Shown here: positions 2 through 18,728 of the stretch, piece by piece
How the letters are laid out: every line of letters starts with the position of its first letter
Position numbering within the stretch: position 1 is the stretch's first letter
Origin: a virus
Length of the DNA: 21,912 nt
IMG/VR virus record: IMGVR_UViG_3300020195_000177
Coordinates: 1-21,912 of that record
Strand: one strand, 5' to 3'
Translations under genes and position numbers: made by a program
The notes under the pieces: generated by a model
What the model was told of the DNA's origin: nothing
Databases searched by the model: none
The model's input: only the letters and a program-made list of their open reading frames with translations

Positions 2-49
2 GGCGGTGTGGGTGGAGTAGGCGCGATTTACATAATCTCAAGTAGATAA
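2..49 (+). CDS. C-terminal end of a gene that begins before the window
   Basis: An open frame enters from the left edge and encodes 15 residues ending in GGVGGVGAIYIISSR before a TAA stop. The next gene starts two bases later, so this is probably the end of an upstream gene in the same plus-strand virion operon. The Gly-rich tail cannot be assigned to a family. Only this fragment is visible, so the function is unknown. Confidence 0.6.
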   Translation, partial: GGVGGVGAIYIISSR

Positions 50-2339: not shown

Positions 2340-3680
2340 ATGTCAGAGAATATATCTAAAAAAGAAATCGCACTAGGCCTAGCAAAGGCTCTTCGGGAAG
2401 CTGTGAGCCGTATAGAACTAGCCTCCAATAAAGAGGCTTTTGGAGTCAAGAAACTCAGCAAAAACATGGGCGGAGGGTTCCCTGGATTGGGGAATCAGGT
2501 TCCTATGGCTAGAGGCGAACCAGAAGCTGACGAATCGTCAGATGGTGGTAACGACGGGGACAACTGCAAAGCCTGTAACGGGCGCAACGAACATCTTGGT
2601 TCGTTGGGCAACCGGATTCATTTTCTTTGCAAGGGCTGTGGACTCACTTCGTCTAAAGCTCACGATGAGCATGTCCAGAAAAAGGAAGTGCTGCCCGGCG
2701 ATAAAAAGTCCCAAGTGGTCGTCGCTGAAGGTAGCGGCGGCGGAATTATCAAAAAGAGTTTGACCGAAACGGACCTAAAATCCGTTGGCAATATGCAGGC
2801 TCAGGCTTCCGCTTCTCCGGTCCGCCAAGGTGCGGGTATGCAGGCTACTAAAGCAGCGGCGAGCAAACCCCCACTCCAAAAAGATGCGATGGACGTTGCT
2901 GTAGGCGTAGGCGCCAGGAGCCCCATGCCTGCCGGTCGTCCTAAACTGCCCGGTATGACTCCTAGTCGTTCTGTCAAGCCTGCAACGCCTAACGCCTCTG
3001 TGAGCGCAGAACAGAAGCCCGCTGCGTTTATTCGTAAGCCTGTGGGTGAGGTCGCAAAACAGCCTGACTCTTCTGAAATTTCTGCCGCTGAAAAAAAAGC
3101 TGCTGGAATTGGATTCCTCTCTAATTTGATTTCAAAGTTTCGCGGCACTGGTAATAAGACGTGGTCGGACCTGCGCGGCGCCGGTACTGTTTCAGCGGGC
3201 AAGGCCGTTAGTCGCATGGGGGCCCGTATGGCCCTCGCGGAAACATCTCCATCTCAGGTTCAAAACGAACTAAAGGGTTTTAAATCCTTGGCGGGCGGAG
3301 CCCCAAACCAACCCAAGGCTGGTGGAACCGAACTAAAGGGGTTTAAATCTCTAGTTCATAAGGGTGAAACGTCTCCATCTCAGGTTCAAAACGAGATGAA
3401 AGGGTTTAAGTCCTTGGCGGGCGGAGCCCCAAACCAACCCAAGGCTGGCGCCGGAACCGAACTAAAGGGGTTCAAATCTCTAGTTCATAAGGGTGAAATG
3501 CAGAAAGACGAAAAAGGGATTCCAGCGGCCCCTAAGGCTCCTGGCGCTCCTGCTCCTGCGACGGCTACCCCCAAAGCGCCTAAAATAGCTCTCACAGGTC
3601 CAACAGGAGCGAAAGGCGCAAGCCAAAGTAACGCAGCTCCCCCCTCGGCCCCGGCGATGAAGTCCGAAGGCAAGAAATAA
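2340..3680 (+). CDS. Low-complexity protein with Cys4 finger and internal 42/43-residue repeats
   Basis: This encodes 446 residues. Residues 4-25 form a helix (ISKKEIALGLAKALREAV) matching the C-terminal helix of the preceding protein. Cys76, Cys79, Cys97 and Cys100 form a CxxC-x17-CxxC arrangement suitable for zinc. From about residue 110 the chain is low complexity and rich in Ala, Pro, Lys and Ser. Two near-identical repeats follow, each carrying two LKGFKSL-type motifs, and the C-terminus is Pro/Ala rich. There are no catalytic motifs. A start at ATG 2340 is supported by the matching helix at the N-terminus, although upstream bases show only a weak GAAG ribosome site. Likely a particle-associated or scaffold-like protein, but this is not established. 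Confidence 0.75.
   Translation: MSENISKKEIALGLAKALREAVSRIELASNKEAFGVKKLSKNMGGGFPGLGNQVPMARGEPEADESSDGGNDGDNCKACNGRNEHLGSLGNRIHFLCKGCGLTSSKAHDEHVQKKEVLPGDKKSQVVVAEGSGGGIIKKSLTETDLKSVGNMQAQASASPVRQGAGMQATKAAASKPPLQKDAMDVAVGVGARSPMPAGRPKLPGMTPSRSVKPATPNASVSAEQKPAAFIRKPVGEVAKQPDSSEISAAEKKAAGIGFLSNLISKFRGTGNKTWSDLRGAGTVSAGKAVSRMGARMALAETSPSQVQNELKGFKSLAGGAPNQPKAGGTELKGFKSLVHKGETSPSQVQNEMKGFKSLAGGAPNQPKAGAGTELKGFKSLVHKGEMQKDEKGIPAAPKAPGAPAPATATPKAPKIALTGPTGAKGASQSNAAPPSAPAMKSEGKK
3243..3497 (+). repeat. Tandem in-frame repeat, 126 and 129 bp
   Basis: Two adjacent copies at 3243-3368 and 3369-3497 encode 42 and 43 residues. Each copy begins TSPSQVQNE and contains two (L/M)KGFKSL motifs. The copies are nearly identical at DNA level; the second has a one-codon insertion (AGAGT versus AGGT) and a few silent or conservative changes. 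This indicates a fairly recent duplication within the gene. Confidence 0.9.
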
Positions 3681-8209: not shown

Positions 8210-8224
8210 CCTTGACCTTTGGGG

Positions 8225-8437
8225 CTAAAGCGCGCCTAGCGCGCAGTACAACTCACCCGAATACTCGTCTTTTAGGACGGCAACCGATACCTTGCCGTCG
8301 CGCCCTACGTAATCAGGCTCGCTAGTGCGCGTGCCAGTATAGCGCCCTTCTAGCGTGCTTACGATGCGCCACAAGTAGCCGCCGCACGGCACGTGGTCGC
8401 CAAGGGTAGGGGCTAATTGGCAATGTTTCGTTTCCAT
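8225..8437 (-). CDS. Small unknown protein, 70 residues
   Basis: I chose the ATG at 8437 (METKHCQLAP). Upstream lies a plausible promoter (TTGCTC, 17 bases, CATAAA) ending seven bases before this ATG, like other near-leaderless genes here. A TTG at 8473 would add 12 residues but has no convincing ribosome site. The sequence looks like a small beta-barrel: GDHVPCGGYLWRIV, then DYVGRDGKVSVAVL, ending ELYCALGAL. The CALGA tail echoes CCALGAV in the 131-residue gene at 7067. Function unknown. Confidence 0.6.
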   Translation of the reverse strand: METKHCQLAPTLGDHVPCGGYLWRIVSTLEGRYTGTRTSEPDYVGRDGKVSVAVLKDEYSGELYCALGAL

Positions 8438-8471
8438 GTATTTATTTATGCCGTATTTCAGCGCGAAGAGC

Positions 8472-10384: not shown

Positions 10385-11026
10385 ATGACCACCCCCTTGA
10401 TTATAATTTGTCTGGTTTTAGTAGGACTGACAATTGGCGGGTGTCTCATATACAGGGACATAGCACGGTCCTATGAGCAGGGGTTCTTTGAGACGGGCGA
10501 AAAAGGGGACGGACCGGACCTAGACGGCGACGGAATCGGGAATGATGTCCATTGGCCCAAAAACAGAATTCCGATTAGGGTAATAATCAGCCCGACCCTG
10601 CCCAAGGCCTACCTCGCAGAGGTCATCCTCGCGATTTCCAAAATCAATACCATCGTACCGGTGTTCGGACCTCTAGAGACCGGTTCGACACATCTCTCTA
10701 ATTACATCGAGATAGGCGGAACCAGGCCTCCTACTGGTGTGCTCTATATCCATAGCGACGCAGGAGACGACCCATCACACGGGATTGCTACCACCTATAG
10801 GTCAGCTAGAGGTGAGATTATTAGCTGTACTCTACAATTTCCGGAATCCGGCGTGAAGCTCGCCAAAAGCATTGTCCTGCATGAGCTTATGCACGCGTTA
10901 GGCTTTGCTCATGATGAAAACAGGAATTCGATTATGTGGCCGTATGCAACCGACCAGCCACAAAAAATCACAAAAAACGACAGCAGGTTGATGGAAAAGG
11001 CGTACGGAAATGCGAAAAGCGATTAG
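10385..11026 (+). CDS. Membrane-anchored metzincin-type zinc protease
   Basis: This encodes 213 residues. Residues 5-23 form a hydrophobic N-terminal anchor or signal (ending IGGC at Cys20, a weak lipobox without the usual basic residues). Residues 45-54 are a DLDGDGIGND calcium-loop-like stretch. The catalytic motif HELMHALGFAH gives His166, Glu167, His170 and His176, the metzincin HExxHxxGxxH signature; SIM at 182-184 is the Met-turn. This places it with matrixin-like proteases, which cleave peptide bonds with a zinc-activated water. With its N-terminal anchor it likely acts outside the cytoplasm. The next gene, a ClpP-like lipoprotein, overlaps its end by 17 bases. The phage substrate is unknown. 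Confidence 0.85.
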   Translation: MTTPLIIICLVLVGLTIGGCLIYRDIARSYEQGFFETGEKGDGPDLDGDGIGNDVHWPKNRIPIRVIISPTLPKAYLAEVILAISKINTIVPVFGPLETGSTHLSNYIEIGGTRPPTGVLYIHSDAGDDPSHGIATTYRSARGEIISCTLQFPESGVKLAKSIVLHELMHALGFAHDENRNSIMWPYATDQPQKITKNDSRLMEKAYGNAKSD

Positions 11027-11771
11027 TGGCATTATCTTTCTGAGTGTTTTGATGGGTTGTAACCAACCTATTATTCGACCGGCCAAGAGCGAGACTCTTG
11101 CTCCTCCCGACATCGTTGCCGCTCTTGCTGCTCCTGCCGCTCCTGCCGAACCTGCTGCTCCTGCCGAACCTGCCACCGTCCTCTGTCCAAAACGCCCCTG
11201 CATCCTAGTAGTAGCCCTACTGGGCCATATCGCGGGCAACATCAGCGAATTGCTGACTGAATTTATCGAGGGCGCCGAAAAGGAAAAGGCCGAAGCTCTG
11301 GTTTTTATCATCGCCTCCCCTGGAGGGGATTTCAACAAAGCCGAATCTATTTATGACTCAATTAAGAATACCAGCATACCTACCTTTTGTTACGTCAAGG
11401 GGATGGCCGCATCAGGAGCTTTCTGGATTTTGCAAGCCTGTACCGAACGGGTAGCAGAACCCAAAGCGCGACTCATGACCCACGCGCCCTACGTAGTAGC
11501 CAAGGCAGGAGTCGCCATGAAACGAACAGACCTAGTCAATGCCATCAACGAAATCGATATGCTTAACGACATTCAAGCATTCGGAATTGCTAGCCGGATG
11601 AAAATGCCGCTCAAGGAGTACAAATCGCGTCTCGGCGGGGCAGACTGGTGGTTTTCAGCGGCGTCTGCGGTGGAATTAGGGGCTATCGATTCGATTGTTG
11701 AGGTCGACGTTGATACCTACATTAGTCAGATTCCTGAAAAGCTCCTAAAATTAAAGGCAAGGTCTAAATGA
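11010..11771 (+). CDS. ClpP-like serine protease with lipoprotein signal
   Basis: This encodes 253 residues. Residues 1-17 are a lipoprotein signal: basic start (MRK), hydrophobic core and lipobox LMGC with Cys17. A linker of repeated Ala-Pro-Ala-Glu units (about 36-56) follows. The protease domain has SPGG at 103-106, nucleophile Ser135 in GMAASG, His158 in LMTHAP and a candidate acid Asp212 in ADWWFSAASAVELGAID. These match the ClpP/SppA-crotonase-fold serine proteases. A secreted, lipid-anchored version is unusual for ClpP, which is cytoplasmic; SppA-like enzymes act at membranes. It follows the metzincin and is coupled to the next gene by an ATGA overlap. Confidence 0.85.
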   Translation: MRKAISGIIFLSVLMGCNQPIIRPAKSETLAPPDIVAALAAPAAPAEPAAPAEPATVLCPKRPCILVVALLGHIAGNISELLTEFIEGAEKEKAEALVFIIASPGGDFNKAESIYDSIKNTSIPTFCYVKGMAASGAFWILQACTERVAEPKARLMTHAPYVVAKAGVAMKRTDLVNAINEIDMLNDIQAFGIASRMKMPLKEYKSRLGGADWWFSAASAVELGAIDSIVEVDVDTYISQIPEKLLKLKARSK

Positions 11772-13085: not shown

Positions 13086-13784
13086 ATGGTCAATCAGAAC
13101 AATGCACGTCTCAATGCCGCGACCAGATTGGTATGTCGGTTCGTTCCGGAATTCCGGGTGATACAAAAATCCGGGTCGCTGTTCCACAAAGTGGTGGGGG
13201 TGCTTTTTGGCCTCATTGGCAATAAGGCATATATGCACCAGTTCTGGACTACTATCAACTACACCACAGCAGCTCCTAAATGCTACGATGATGGATACGA
13301 TGCAGAGTCGTGGAAGACTGTCCTGCACGAGGGGTGGCACGCAATCCAACGCAAGAAATACGGTATCTGGTTCCCCATAGGGTACCTATTCCCGCAAGTG
13401 CTAGGAATAGTCGGCATCATCTGCAATGTGGCACTGCTCTCTGTCGGTTGGTGGACACCGTGGGTCCTCATCCCTCTAGCCTTCCTGTTGCCCCTACCAG
13501 CTCCTTTTAGAGCCTTGTGGGAGTGGGAGGCCTACAAGATATCAATAGCGTGCGATTTCTGGCACTGGGGGGATATCAAGGAAAAGGCTCTCCCTAAATA
13601 CGTATCGGGGTGGCTAGTTGCTAACTTTACCGGGCCGTCCTATTATTTCATGTGGCCTTTTCGGGGCATGATTGAACGGGAATCCTACCTGTTCATCGAA
13701 CGGCTCAAGAGAGCGAACGTGCCCATAGACCTCTATCTAAACGAGTGCCGCACTTTGTGCGTGAGTCACCGCAAAAAATCCTAG
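13086..13784 (+). CDS. Membrane HExxH metalloprotease-like protein
   Basis: This encodes 232 residues. His81, Glu82 and His85 (VLHEGWHAIQRK) form an HExxH zinc motif. Two membrane helices lie at about 98-138, and WEWEAY at 145-150 offers Glu146 or Glu148 as third zinc ligand, in the HExxH...E-A-Y style of gluzincins. The chain is rich in Trp. The rest has no clear domain name, and activity is a prediction. It begins five bases after the holin-like gene stop and probably shares its transcript. The overlap of its end with the next frame is 40 bases. Confidence 0.7.
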   Translation: MVNQNNARLNAATRLVCRFVPEFRVIQKSGSLFHKVVGVLFGLIGNKAYMHQFWTTINYTTAAPKCYDDGYDAESWKTVLHEGWHAIQRKKYGIWFPIGYLFPQVLGIVGIICNVALLSVGWWTPWVLIPLAFLLPLPAPFRALWEWEAYKISIACDFWHWGDIKEKALPKYVSGWLVANFTGPSYYFMWPFRGMIERESYLFIERLKRANVPIDLYLNECRTLCVSHRKKS

Positions 13785-15409: not shown

Positions 15410-15481
15410 AGCCCGTTGCAGGAATCGAACCCGCCTATCCGGTTTACAAGACCGGAACATCGCCACCAATGCTTAACGGGC
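15410..15481 (-). tRNA. tRNA-Thr(UGU), ACA codon
   Basis: Acceptor GCCCGTT pairs with AACGGGC, discriminator T. Anticodon stem CCGGT/ACCGG around loop CTTGTAA gives anticodon TGT. T-arm GGGTTCGATTCC is intact. The first nine bases overlap the end of the upstream coding gene, whose stop codon lies inside the tRNA. Confidence 0.92.
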
Positions 15482-16177
15482 CAAGATTTTCATCGCAGTG
15501 TGGTCAAAATCTAGGATATGAATCCTATCTAGCCAGTGCTTGGCGAGCCAGTCCTTCCCCCACACGCGAGGGTAATACTTCTTAAAAATTTTCTTCAGCT
15601 TGCTACTGAATGCCTTGTTCATCTTAAAGTCGACGCCCGTTAAGCCCGTGCAGACGTAGGCGTTGATTTCGTCCATAATCACTCGGGGCATATATCCACA
15701 GGCGGTAAGCCAACTAGATAGCTGCTTGATAAAATGCCTAGTCTCCTCGTCCGCGTCGAATGATACCTTGATAGCCTCCAGCACTTCGGTCCGGTACGCT
15801 TCATCCAAGAAAAAACACCCGTGCACGATTTCATGCGCTACGGTAGAGTGGCTCTTCTGCCCGGTGGCAATGATATACCCGTCAGTTATTGACGAGAAAT
15901 GGTCCAAAAAGGCACTTTCCTTTCGGGTGAACGGGAGGAAGTCCTCGTCTAAATAGAAGCGAGCTAGGGCCCGAACAGGAAAATTAAATCCAGACCAGTC
16001 CTGGTGGTACATCCTACCTCCAGTCTCCTCCTCATACCAGTCCTCGTACTCCTCCCGCGAAAAGGACGCGCCCGCAAACTTAGGCGATTCGTAGTGTTCC
16101 TGGAATCGCATCATGGTGGTCCCGCACAGATATTGTGTAGGGAACCCCACAAAATATATGGGGAGTTTGGTTGGCAT
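15473..16177 (-). CDS. HExxH phage protein, predicted metalloprotease
   Basis: This encodes 234 residues. An N-terminal signature MRFQEHYESPKF followed by an aromatic DWSGFNFP segment recalls an unnamed phage protein family that I know only by pattern. His115, Glu116 and His119 (VAHEIVHGCFF) form the zinc motif, and DEINAY at 169-173 offers Glu170 as a third ligand. No signal peptide or membrane segment is visible, so it would act in the cytosol or be packaged. The substrate is unknown. The ATG follows the previous stop directly. Its last nine bases, including TAA, are also the 5' end of tRNA-Thr. Confidence 0.7.
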   Translation of the reverse strand: MPTKLPIYFVGFPTQYLCGTTMMRFQEHYESPKFAGASFSREEYEDWYEEETGGRMYHQDWSGFNFPVRALARFYLDEDFLPFTRKESAFLDHFSSITDGYIIATGQKSHSTVAHEIVHGCFFLDEAYRTEVLEAIKVSFDADEETRHFIKQLSSWLTACGYMPRVIMDEINAYVCTGLTGVDFKMNKAFSSKLKKIFKKYYPRVWGKDWLAKHWLDRIHILDFDHTAMKILAR

Positions 16178-16561: not shown

Positions 16562-16807
16562 CTACTCGATGGTAGGCAGGCCACCTTCGCGGCGGCATTC
16601 TCCCCTTATCCACCACTGCTTGAGCCCGTTGCCGCCCTCGATAGCGGGCAAGTCGTTGTCACGGTGGAGCTGTCCATTCTGGTACCACTCCTTGGTACCA
16701 TTCTCCTTCTCAACGGCAGGCAAGGGTCCGTCACGATGGAGCTGACCTTTTTCGTTGTGCCAACGGACGGTTCCGTATTCATCCGTACTTACTTTGCTAT
16801 TGCCCAT
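16562..16807 (-). CDS. Short Trp-rich 24-residue repeat protein, paralogue 4
   Basis: 81 residues starting at ATG 16807 (MGNSKVSTDEYGTVRWHN). A TTG 18 bases upstream lies within the promoter and is rejected. Three units with the shape HRDxxLPAxE...G.K.WW..G follow; the last is cut off at LPTIE. The N-terminus aligns with those of the three neighbours (S-T-D..GTVRW-N), so it is a family member with its own leaderless promoter. Repeats of this style resemble YwqK/MORN-like phage repeats, whose function is not settled. Confidence 0.75.
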   Translation of the reverse strand: MGNSKVSTDEYGTVRWHNEKGQLHRDGPLPAVEKENGTKEWYQNGQLHRDNDLPAIEGGNGLKQWWIRGECRREGGLPTIE

Positions 16808-16812
16808 TATTA

Positions 16813-16841
16813 ATGGTACAGACAATCGAATTAAATGTCAA
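16813..16841 (-). promoter_or_regulatory. Sigma70-like promoter, leaderless
   Basis: TTGACA (16836-16841 complement), 17-base spacer, TACCAT (16813-16818 complement), five bases to the ATG at 16807. The stop of the preceding paralogue (16838-16840) lies inside the -35. The -35 and spacer begin TTGACATTTAATT, the same as the promoter at 14810-14837. Confidence 0.75.
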
Positions 16842-17344
16842 CCGTCATTGCTCCTTTTTTCCCGTTCGACGGTAGGCAGGTCTCCCCATTCAATAATGGG
16901 CAACCCTCCATCGCGATGGAAGAGACCGTCTTTCCACCACTGCTTGGTCCCGTCTTTCCACTCGATAGCAGGCAAGCCTCCTGCTCGATGGGGTTTGCCA
17001 TTTATCCACCATTCCTTGTGTCCGTCTGTGTATTCGACAGCGGGAAGGTCTCCTTCACGATGAAGCTGCCCCCTTACCCGCCACGACCTATTTCCGTCTG
17101 CCCATTCGATGGAGGGCAGGCCGCCGTCACGGTGACGCTGGCCATCTACCCACCACTCCTTGCTCCCGTCTGCGTGTTCGACGGCGGGTAGGCCTTCACT
17201 GCGATGAGGAAGGCCGCTTTCGTCAAACCAACGGACAGTTCCGTCTTCGTCGACTACTTTGTTCTTCATTTTATCTTCTCGGATTTTTCGATACCGTACT
17301 AAATCCGCTTCTACTACGTTTAGCCACCACTGTTCGTCGGTCAC
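16838..17344 (-). CDS. Trp-rich 24-residue repeat protein, paralogue 3
   Basis: 168 residues from a GTG at 17344 that shares one base with the previous TAG (TAGTG); GGTGGAG eight bases upstream is a ribosome site. An internal ATG at 17275 or nearby gives a start aligning with the other paralogues (MKNKVVDEDGTVRWF). The first part has WWLNVVEADL, similar to FWFNVVESF in the upstream paralogue. Five repeat units follow; the last is truncated into WGDLPTVEREKRSNDG. It has 13 Trp in 168 residues. Function unknown. Confidence 0.7.
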   Translation of the reverse strand: MTDEQWWLNVVEADLVRYRKIREDKMKNKVVDEDGTVRWFDESGLPHRSEGLPAVEHADGSKEWWVDGQRHRDGGLPSIEWADGNRSWRVRGQLHREGDLPAVEYTDGHKEWWINGKPHRAGGLPAIEWKDGTKQWWKDGLFHRDGGLPIIEWGDLPTVEREKRSNDG

Positions 17345-18006
17345 TAGGAAATCTCCACCAATTTATATCTCTTGCCGCCAATCTCGATAATGTCAGAGCA
17401 GGAAGGAGGAGGTCGAACTTCCTCACCTTTGATATACCACTGCCTTTCCCCGTCCGCCCGTTCGACGGCGGGCAAGCCTCCGTCACGGTGAAGTTTCCCG
17501 TTCACGTACCAATGCTTGGTCCCATTTAACCACTCGATAGCAGGCAGGCCGCCGTCACGGTGGGGCTGTCCGTCCACCCACCACTGCCTTTCCCCATCTG
17601 GCCTTTGGAAGGCGGGCAACCCGCCGTCACGGTGAAGGAGTCCGTTTACTCGCCACTCCTTATGTCCGTCTGCCCGTTCAACGGCAGGTAATCCACCATC
17701 ACGGTGACGCTGACCGTCTACGTACCACTGCCTGGTCCCGTTCGACCGCTCAACAGCAGGCAATCCGTCGTCACGGTGAAGGAGGCCGTTTTCCCACCAC
17801 TCCCTACCGCCGTCTGTCCATTCGACGGCAGGCAGGCCGCCATCGCGGTGAGGAAGTCTCAGGTTATTATACCAGCGAATGGTACCGCTAGAGTCCGTTG
17901 TCGAATTTTCAGTGTTCATTTTTGCCTCTATGCCGCCGGATTCCGGTAACTGTTGCCGGAATAGTTGCCGGAATGATTCTACTACATTAAACCAGAAAAT
18001 GGTCAC
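17344..18006 (-). CDS. Trp-rich 24-residue repeat protein, paralogue 2
   Basis: 220 residues from a GTG overlapping the previous TAG by one base, with GGTGGAGA six bases upstream. An ATG at 17919 (MNTENSTTD), with AGAGGC before it, would align with the start of paralogue 1. Six full repeat units (HRDGGLPAVE...DG...W) are followed by a conserved tail: GEEVRPPPSCSDIIEIGGKR, then YKLVEIS. The tail is shared with paralogue 1. There is no signal or membrane segment. It may form an elongated solenoid for binding, an inference from its repeats. Confidence 0.78.
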   Translation of the reverse strand: MTIFWFNVVESFRQLFRQQLPESGGIEAKMNTENSTTDSSGTIRWYNNLRLPHRDGGLPAVEWTDGGREWWENGLLHRDDGLPAVERSNGTRQWYVDGQRHRDGGLPAVERADGHKEWRVNGLLHRDGGLPAFQRPDGERQWWVDGQPHRDGGLPAIEWLNGTKHWYVNGKLHRDGGLPAVERADGERQWYIKGEEVRPPPSCSDIIEIGGKRYKLVEIS

Positions 18007-18728
18007 TAAATCTCCACCAATTTATATCTCTTGCCACCAATCTCGATAAGGTCAGAGCAGGAAGGAGGAGGTCGAACTTCCTCACCTTTGATATACCACG
18101 ACTTGGTTCCGTCCGCCCGCTCGACGGCAGGCAAGCCTCCGTCACGGTGGAGTTCTCCGTCCGTGTACCATTTTTTGGTTCCGTCTGCCCACTCGACCGC
18201 AGGCAGGCCGCCGTCACGGTGGGGCTGTCCGTTTATTCGCCACTCTTTAGTTCCACTTGCGCACACAACGGCAGGCAGGCCGCCGTCACGATGACGGTGG
18301 TCGTTCACAAACCACTGTCTGTCGCCATCTGCCCCCTCAATAGCAGGAAGGTCGCCGCCACGATGGCGCTGGCCGTCTACGTACCACTGCTTGGTCCCGT
18401 CTAACCACTCGACCGCAGGCAAATCATCTTCGCGGTGGAGTTGACCGTCCGTCCACCATTCCTTGGTCCCGTCTACCTGTTCAAAGGCAGGCAATCCTCC
18501 ATCACGATGACGAACACCGTTTGTCCACCACTCCTTGGTGCCGTCTGGTCGTTCGATTGCGGGCAGGTCTCCTCCACGGTGGGGGCGTCCATCCACCCAC
18601 CATTCCTTGGTGCCGTCTGGTCTCACGATGGCGGGCAGACCTCCGCCACGATGAAGTTCCCTATTCTGGTTATACCAGCGAACGGTTCCGACTGAGTCTG
18701 TTGAGACTTCAAATACTCCATATACCAT
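18006..18728 (-). CDS. Trp-rich 24-residue repeat protein, paralogue 1
   Basis: 240 residues from ATG 18728, with CTAAAGGA as ribosome site eight to nine bases upstream. A short N-terminal part (VYGVFEVSTDSVGTVRWYN) is followed by eight units of 24 residues with the pattern HR-D/G-G-G-LPA, E, DGTKEW(W)..G. The tail EEVRPPPSCSDLIEIGGK ends RYKLVEI. It has 14 Trp in 240 residues. It resembles YwqK/MORN-like repeat proteins of large phages in style. The gene lies in the block carrying tRNA-Trp. Function unknown. Confidence 0.8.
   Translation of the reverse strand: MVYGVFEVSTDSVGTVRWYNQNRELHRGGGLPAIVRPDGTKEWWVDGRPHRGGDLPAIERPDGTKEWWTNGVRHRDGGLPAFEQVDGTKEWWTDGQLHREDDLPAVEWLDGTKQWYVDGQRHRGGDLPAIEGADGDRQWFVNDHRHRDGGLPAVVCASGTKEWRINGQPHRDGGLPAVEWADGTKKWYTDGELHRDGGLPAVERADGTKSWYIKGEEVRPPPSCSDLIEIGGKRYKLVEI

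What the first reader, a model, noticed from the sequence alone, without database searches (positions are those of the whole stretch)
16562..18728. Four tandem Trp-rich 24-residue repeat genes with a copied junction
Units of 72 bases occur 3, 5, 6 and 8 times in adjacent genes with the same N-terminal block (GTVRWYN) and, in two, the same tail (GEEVRPPPSCSD and IEIGGKRYKLVEI). TAGTG overlaps and GGTGGAG ribosome sites are copied. Units keep HR, G, LPA, E, G and W but vary at positions about 11-12, 15-17 and 19-24, the pattern of a solenoid with a tunable surface, such as a binding or decoy protein. Similarity to YwqK/MORN-like repeats is in style.
Basis: partly seen in the sequence, partly recalled or inferred. 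Interest (0 to 1): 0.62.

Follow-up and report, generated by a model that had tools for sequence, protein, structure and literature searches.

The report
Phage array of MORN-like solenoid genes
A contractile-tailed phage related to Myxococcus phage Mx1 carries a row of four duplicated genes whose tandem 24-residue repeats are predicted with high confidence to stack into a MORN-type beta-solenoid, a rod-shaped scaffold that large viruses copy, lengthen and insert into other proteins, probably to bind partner proteins early in infection.

Summary
Four adjacent minus-strand genes carry 3, 5, 6 and 8 units of 24 residues; two share a near-identical 3' end and a copied TAGTG junction. AlphaFold2 gives a confident beta-solenoid for the 8-unit protein (pLDDT 91.5), and its best solved matches are MORN repeats, so the MORN likeness is one of fold, although no Pfam model reaches its cut-off. 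The window is a fragment of a phage related to Myxococcus phage Mx1. A 98.5%-identical strain and a contig from the same sample, probably the same genome, carry at least 17 more repeat genes plus a 2083-residue NUDIX/nuclease/kinase protein with about 25 interleaved units; Mx1 has none in the 94% scanned. Several genes sit behind copied sigma70-like promoters, suggesting early expression. Relatives fill large phage contigs, reach giant viruses and a few bacteria and plasmids, and are fused to the scaffold of a T4-like phage. Unit number changes between close relatives (30 versus 28). Most likely they are extendable protein-binding adaptors expressed early; the partner is unknown. Fold and evolution are well supported; function is inferred.

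The parts
18006..18728 (-). Gene D: N-cap GTVRWYN, 8 units of 24 aa, C-terminal tail
   Evidence: AlphaFold2 model pLDDT 91.5
17344..18006 (-). Gene C: GTG start overlapping the stop of D, 6 units, same C-terminal tail as D
   Evidence: units C2/C5/C6 match D4/D7/D8 (81, 78, 88% DNA identity), i.e. D with two units more
16838..17344 (-). Gene B: GTG start overlapping the stop of C, 5 units and a fused remnant of a sixth, no tail
16562..16807 (-). Gene A: ATG at 16807 (MGNSKVSTDEYGTVRWHN), 3 units (third degenerate), stops after LPTIE
   Evidence: the TTG start at 16825 listed by ORF calling lies inside the promoter
16808..16841 (-). Promoter of A: TTGACA-17-TACCAT, 5 bases before ATG (leaderless arrangement)
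   Evidence: same core in front of repeat genes in L117 and L118
18004..18018 (-). Copied junction D|C: GGTGGAG ATT TAGTG
17342..17359 (-). Copied junction C|B: GGTGGAG ATTTCC TAGTG
18009..18098 (-). C-terminal module of D: WYIKGEEVRPPPSCSDLIEIGGKRYKLVEI (predicted beta hairpin)
   Evidence: the motif recurs at the end of repeat proteins in G001, L016, L049, L055, L083, L089, L092
17347..17439 (-). C-terminal module of C
   Evidence: near-identical DNA to that of D

Best explanation
The four genes encode small proteins built almost wholly of a divergent, virus-enriched MORN-type repeat. Each 24-residue unit forms two short beta hairpins (positions 9-10/16-17 and 19-20/23-24) joined by an HRxGGLPA loop; units stack into an extendable rod capped by GTVRWYN and, in C and D, ended by a constant C-terminal hairpin. 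Fold: shown by prediction. Arrays grow by copying whole genes, either with the translational junction (D-C-B) or with a sigma70-type promoter (A and the arrays in L117/L118), and by gain or loss of whole units: shown by sequence. How it works (inferred): the proteins are made early from host-type promoters and act as protein-binding adaptors. The constant end would dock to a shared partner or dimerise, as MORN1 does through its C-terminal repeats, while the rod with variable turn and hairpin residues, differing in length and sequence between paralogues, engages host (or phage) proteins or peptides, for example components of host defence or host regulation. That they bind proteins rather than lipids or nothing, and that targets are host factors, is not shown.
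For: Fold: pLDDT 91.5, pTM 0.79. Foldseek PDB top 8, E 1.8e-7 to 1.7e-5, are all MORN1 and junctophilin; VIA Z 9.3-9.9 for MORN1 and junctophilin-2, 10.5 for the CPAP TCP10/G-box. A 23-residue-unit relative gives the same topology and the same MORN1 matches. Solved MORN repeats are protein-interaction modules that dimerise by their C-termini (PMC7725318), and MORN4 binds myosin IIIa (PMC4379085). Purifying selection on framework positions (pN/pS 0.08) with near-free variable positions (0.85) shows the units are maintained proteins. The constant tail recurs in unrelated contigs, only in repeat proteins among ORFs held. Gene copying: D/C tails and junction, C(i)=D(i+2) register (p 0.025). Unit indel in close relatives. 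Promoter-gene cassettes: 16 hits v 0-2 in controls; the core sequence only in window, L118 and L117 among the distinct loci held. In the likely same genome the repeat is also built into a NUDIX + PBECR5 nuclease + PI3/4-kinase-like protein.
Against: No partner, no expression data, no neighbouring gene with a known conflict function; padloc finds nothing. Variable positions give no sign of positive selection. In a T4-like phage the same repeat sits in prohead-core proteins, which points to a structural use at least there. The constant tail is absent from A and B. No promoter of this type was found in front of the D-C-B operon, so early expression is predicted for A only. TM-scores to MORN structures are modest (0.39-0.43), perhaps because long rods differ in twist.
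Confidence: 0.5

Rival explanations
1. Virion or prohead module: the solenoids are spacers or internal proteins of the capsid, packed or built into scaffold and ejected enzymes, and the free-standing genes are a store of copies that recombine into such proteins.
For: T4-like contig L078: two repeat proteins lie between portal and prohead protease, where T4 has its prohead core genes, and the gp22-type scaffold (PF25623, 7.5e-46) carries five units at its N-terminus. In G001 units are interleaved between catalytic domains of a giant protein encoded downstream of the capsid gene; one of its arrays lies next to the major capsid gene.
Against: The window genes are on the strand opposite to the structural genes, in an accessory region with tRNAs, and A has a host-type promoter. 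No capsid-targeting sequence was recognised in them.
Confidence: 0.2
2. Antitoxin or immunity bank: like YwqK, the MORN_2-type antitoxin of Bacillus, each paralogue neutralises a host toxin, and tandem duplication widens the range.
For: YwqK is described as the antitoxin of a putative toxin-antitoxin pair (PMC6024767) and carries MORN_2-type repeats (family knowledge); gene A has a weak MORN_2 hit (15.1 bits); BFVD lists a Pithovirus 'Antitoxin' among structural matches. Tandem paralogue arrays resemble poly-immunity loci.
Against: MORN_2 is far below its cut-off (29.6 bits) in A and absent in B, C and D; no toxin gene was recognised next to the array.
Confidence: 0.13
3. Recombination-driven coding repeat with little specific function: copies persist because repeats amplify easily, and variable positions are simply unconstrained.
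For: Degenerate third unit in A, remnant in B, places with internal stops in G001; pN/pS at variable positions close to 0.85; arrays absent from the related isolate Mx1.
Against: Framework pN/pS 0.08 over 20 unit copies with synonymous sites near saturation; promoters, ribosome sites and start codons kept with the genes; hundreds of viral loci.
Confidence: 0.12
4. Lipid or membrane binding, as the name MORN suggests.
For: Junctophilin MORN regions are membrane-associated (literature reviewed in PMC7725318).
Against: The same paper finds no membrane binding by a pure MORN protein. The proteins show no signal or transmembrane segment on reading.
Confidence: 0.05

Closest known systems
MORN repeats of solved structure (MORN1 of T. 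brucei, T. gondii, P. falciparum; junctophilin-1/2; MORN4)
   Same: 23-24-residue tandem units, W-x-N-G-x-x-H core like the published YEGEWxNGKxHGYG, two-strand hairpins stacked into a rod
   Different: The GxG after H is replaced by R-x-(D/G)-G-(L)-P-A; one extra residue (L/K before PA) gives 24 in this lineage; no Pfam MORN model passes its cut-off; viral
Uncharacterised 'HREDGPA' proteins of giant viruses and phages (mimivirus R871, Powai lake megavirus, Marseillevirus LCMAC101, Agrobacterium phage Atu_ph07, Celeribacter phage P12053L)
   Same: Same kind of repeat, in P12053L with 23-residue units; the best BFVD matches are 29-47% identical over the same fold; P12053L also shares the C-terminal tail
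   Different: The window's 24-residue LPA form and its junction- and promoter-copied arrays are particular to this Mx1-like lineage and a few other contigs
CPAP/SAS-4 TCP10 (G-box) domain
   Same: Single-layer beta rod of glycine-rich hairpins, VIA Z 10.5; weak Tcp10_C hits in relatives
   Different: rmsd 8-9 A, eukaryotic centriole protein, repeat sequence different
YwqK-type MORN_2 antitoxins
   Same: MORN_2-like repeat style; weak hit in gene A
   Different: No linked toxin, score far below cut-off
Polyvalent proteins of phages (PMC5512222)
   Same: The G001 giant protein combines NUDIX, PBECR5-type nuclease and kinase-like domains
   Different: That paper has no mention of MORN repeats; the window genes are repeat-only

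Membership tests
MORN repeat | Tandem units of about 23 residues | tested here: met
   24 in the window, 23 in most relatives
MORN repeat | Beta-hairpin solenoid fold of solved MORN proteins | tested here: met
   AlphaFold2 model; Foldseek top 8 all MORN1/junctophilin, VIA Z 9-10, repeated on a 23-aa relative. By prediction only
MORN repeat | Match to Pfam MORN/MORN_2 at the curated cut-off | tested here: not met
   MORN_2 15.1 bits v 29.6 in A, none in B, C, D; NCBIfam none
MORN repeat | Conserved GxG after NGKxH | tested here: not met
   W-x-N/D-G-x-x-H is kept but followed by R-x-x-G-LPA. Hence called MORN-type / MORN-like, not a member of the Pfam family
YwqK antitoxin | Linked toxin gene (YwqJ-like) | tested here: not met
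   No toxin recognised among the neighbours by Pfam or padloc
YwqK antitoxin | Neutralises a toxin | not testable with these tools
   Needs an experiment
DUF6745 (PF20530) | Match at the curated cut-off | tested here: not met
   No hit for the window proteins; 23-aa relatives hit only about 17-40 of 206 positions
TCP10 / G-box domain | Tcp10_C profile and fold | tested here: inconclusive
   Fold Z 10.5 but rmsd 8.2; Tcp10_C 13.6 bits v 36 in D
Polyvalent phage protein (for the G001 giant protein) | Several effector domains in one polypeptide | tested here: met
   NUDIX 3.2e-21, PI3/4-kinase 2.4e-10, PBECR5 2.1e-7
Polyvalent phage protein (for the G001 giant protein) | Packaged and injected with the genome | not testable with these tools
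   Needs virion proteomics

The most novel reading that the evidence does not exclude
Large DNA viruses, phages and giant viruses alike, share a portable, length-adjustable MORN-like rod that spreads both as promoter-gene cassettes and as insertions into their enzymes and capsid scaffold, and use it as a general repertoire of binders against host proteins, comparable in role to the ankyrin or LRR repertoires of other intracellular parasites.
Probability: 0.18. Interest if true: 0.75.

Novelty: new variant of a known kind. Interest (0 to 1): 0.5.

Why it matters
The repeat is very common in large phage contigs (272 confirmed stretches in one scan), yet no library searched here holds a curated family for it and no function is known. 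Showing that it is a MORN-type solenoid, that it spreads as gene cassettes with their own promoters, and that it is built into a capsid scaffold and a multi-enzyme phage protein makes a concrete target: one pull-down or one deletion in a culturable relative (Celeribacter phage P12053L, Agrobacterium phage Atu_ph07) would tell what hundreds of viral genes do.

Tried and rejected
Sequence search of the PDB with D and with a 28-sequence profile: nothing meaningful. Pfam/NCBIfam hits such as DUF834, PetP, Mago-bind, Inhibitor_I66: short composition-driven matches below cut-off or over a few residues. Portal (L012) and QueE-like (L010) ORFs first flagged as carrying units were false positives of my pattern; read by eye and dropped. 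Positive selection at variable positions: not found. Recent unit-by-unit duplication: adjacent units are no more alike than distant ones (66.1 v 66.1%), so the recent event is gene duplication plus a two-unit length difference. Other strains carrying this very array: none found in IMG/VR; the strain contig 3300015360_000332 stops before it. A neighbour gene (15473-16177) found no relatives. The two collection scans used different patterns, so their counts give only a rough idea of viral enrichment. The absence of repeats in Mx1 rests on about 160 of 169.6 kb.

Full report
WHAT IS THERE. Four genes on the minus strand of the window carry 3, 5 (plus a fused remnant), 6 and 8 tandem units of 24 residues, typically HRDGGLPAVEWADGTKEWWVNGQL. 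The longest regular run is 8 units; 200 Markov shuffles of the window give at most 2. D and C share the C-terminal tail and the stop/start overlap TAGTG preceded by GGTGGAG; C and B share the same overlap. Gene A does not: it stands behind its own promoter, TTGACA-17-TACCAT with ATG five bases on, so its likely start is 16807, not the TTG at 16825.

HOW IT EVOLVED. DNA identity between units is about 65% whether they are neighbours or not, but C2, C5 and C6 match D4, D7 and D8 at 81, 78 and 88%. The register C(i)=D(i+2) is better than any other (permutation p 0.025), and the last unit, tail and junction are nearly identical. The recent event is thus a whole-gene duplication with a difference of two units, not stepwise unit duplication. 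The same kind of change is seen directly elsewhere: two close 174-kb viruses have the same ORF with 30 and 28 units, differing by a 48-residue gap. On codons, framework positions have pN/pS 0.08 and variable ones 0.85, with synonymous sites near saturation. In recent orthologue pairs, which are not saturated, the variable positions have 0.68. The protein is maintained; its variable positions are loosely constrained; positive selection is not shown.

WHOSE GENES. The tail sheath is 44% identical over its length to that of Myxococcus phage Mx1, and flanking genes are collinear with Mx1 36.5-42.7 and 74.3-75 kb. The array lies in the accessory block between (window 6.7-20.2 kb, with five tRNA genes). 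Contig 3300015360_000332 is a strain of this phage (98.5% over 8.2 kb) that extends 6.3 kb or more to the left and begins inside another array of at least three repeat genes. Contig 3300015360_000051 (G001, 57 kb, same sample) is Mx1-like in polymerase, terminase, portal, protease and capsid genes, covers a different part of the Mx1 map, and has three further groups of repeat genes (at 0.2-4.3, 20.8-22.6 and 45.2-47.1 kb) and a giant ORF. A 29-bp promoter core is shared by the window, 000332 and G001 and by no other locus held, Mx1 included. I infer, not prove, that the three contigs belong to one phage lineage or genome; two of them begin inside a repeat array. Mx1 itself has no unit in the 160 kb scanned.

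PROMOTERS. In six loci of this lineage, 16 sites read TTGACA (one mismatch allowed)-16..18-TAnnnT-3..8-ATG/GTG with an ORF of 40 or more codons, against 0-2 in ten Markov controls; Mx1 has two weak ones in 160 kb. The start codon falls where transcription should begin, so these genes are predicted to be leaderless and transcribed by the host enzyme, that is, early. Several of the sites stand directly before repeat genes (window A, L118 244, L117 16884, 17677, 18128). No such site was found before the D-C-B operon.

FOLD. AlphaFold2 on D with 27 relatives: mean pLDDT 91.5, pTM 0.79, a beta rod with one strand pattern per 24 residues. Foldseek against the PDB: the only hits below 1e-3 are MORN1 proteins and junctophilins. 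VIA Z is 9.3-9.9 for MORN1 and junctophilin-2 and 10.5 for the CPAP G-box, with rmsd 6-9 A. A 23-residue relative (L015) gives pLDDT 93.4, the same strand pattern with a loop one residue shorter, and MORN1 hits from 1.9e-9. The published MORN consensus YEGEWxNGKxHGYG (PMC7725318) shares W-x-N-G-x-x-H with the phage unit; the following GxG is replaced by R-x-x-G-(L)-P-A. By fold it is MORN-type; by curated sequence model it is not a member.

WHERE ELSE. One scan of viral contigs confirmed 272 of 313 candidate stretches, against 5 of 261 in 85,000 prokaryote species with other patterns. Carriers include a 402-kb phage contig with 58 matching places, mostly adjacent genes that share a helical-looking N-terminal domain, proteins of giant viruses found by structure, a few plasmids and few isolated phages (P12053L, Atu_ph07). 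Two fusions are informative. In G001 about 25 units are interleaved with NUDIX, PBECR5-type nuclease and PI3/4-kinase-like domains in a protein of at least about 2070 residues. In a T4-like contig (L078) two repeat proteins sit between portal and prohead protease, and five units are fused to the gp22-type scaffold.

HOW IT LIKELY WORKS. Shown: maintained, extendable rods, copied as genes and as units (fold by prediction). Predicted from sequence: early expression of A and of the promoter-borne copies. Inferred: protein-binding adaptors. MORN repeats of known structure are protein-interaction modules and dimerise through the C-terminus (PMC7725318); MORN4 binds the tail of myosin IIIa (PMC4379085). 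The recurring C-terminal tail in many repeat proteins fits a constant docking or dimerising end beside a variable rod. Rivals, in order: virion/prohead module, antitoxin bank, weakly functional amplifying repeat, lipid binding.

NOVELTY. MORN-annotated repeats are known as abundant in giant viruses (PMC8208085) and were noted as enriched in long-read marine viral data (PMC9238414). In the open-access papers searched I found no description of gene arrays with copied promoters or junctions in phages, nor of this repeat in a T4-type scaffold or a polyvalent enzyme; that is a limited search. Hence: new variant of a known kind.

Noticed in passing
window 16841-16805, 14837-14801, 12778-12742 (minus): Sigma70-like promoters TTGACA-16/17-TAnnnT placed 5-6 bases before the ATG, i.e. 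predicted leaderless genes; a conserved 29-bp core recurs in L118 and L117.
   Followed up: partly
L078 9383-10954, 5641-6849, 6981-8231 (contig 3300022745_000018): T4-like phage with 24-residue MORN-like units fused to its gp22-type scaffold and in two proteins between portal and prohead protease, some beside a repeated motif EALDRIAISILESxQEQIDELSKTTLASY.
   Followed up: partly
L021 6177-12425 (contig 3300015360_000051, 50496-56744): ORF of about 2080 residues joining NUDIX, PBECR5-type nuclease and kinase-like domains with about 25 repeat units; Mx1 has a separate NUDIX protein and kinase there.
   Followed up: partly
window 10385-11026, 13086-13784, 15473-16177: Three ORFs with HExxH zinc-peptidase motifs (HELMH, a matrixin PF00413 at 4.5e-7; HEGWH; HEIVH) within 6 kb of the accessory region, plus a ClpP-like protease at 11010-11771.
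   Followed up: partly
L006/L008/L059 (contig 3300027985_000918, about 87-110 kb): About 20 kb of adjacent repeat genes, most with the same N-terminal domain (QVTLFQEFLGDREGVEPTPEVVREAALYGLDV) that no library searched names.
   Followed up: no
window 3266-3478 within ORF 2340-3680: Another coding repeat, 63 bp, ETSPSQVQNELKGFKSLAGGAPNQPKAG, in a 446-aa protein beside the tail sheath.
   Followed up: no
window 8213-8443 against L118 14470-14478: About 230 bp of the window are missing in the near-identical strain contig 3300015360_000332, between minus-strand accessory genes.
   Followed up: no
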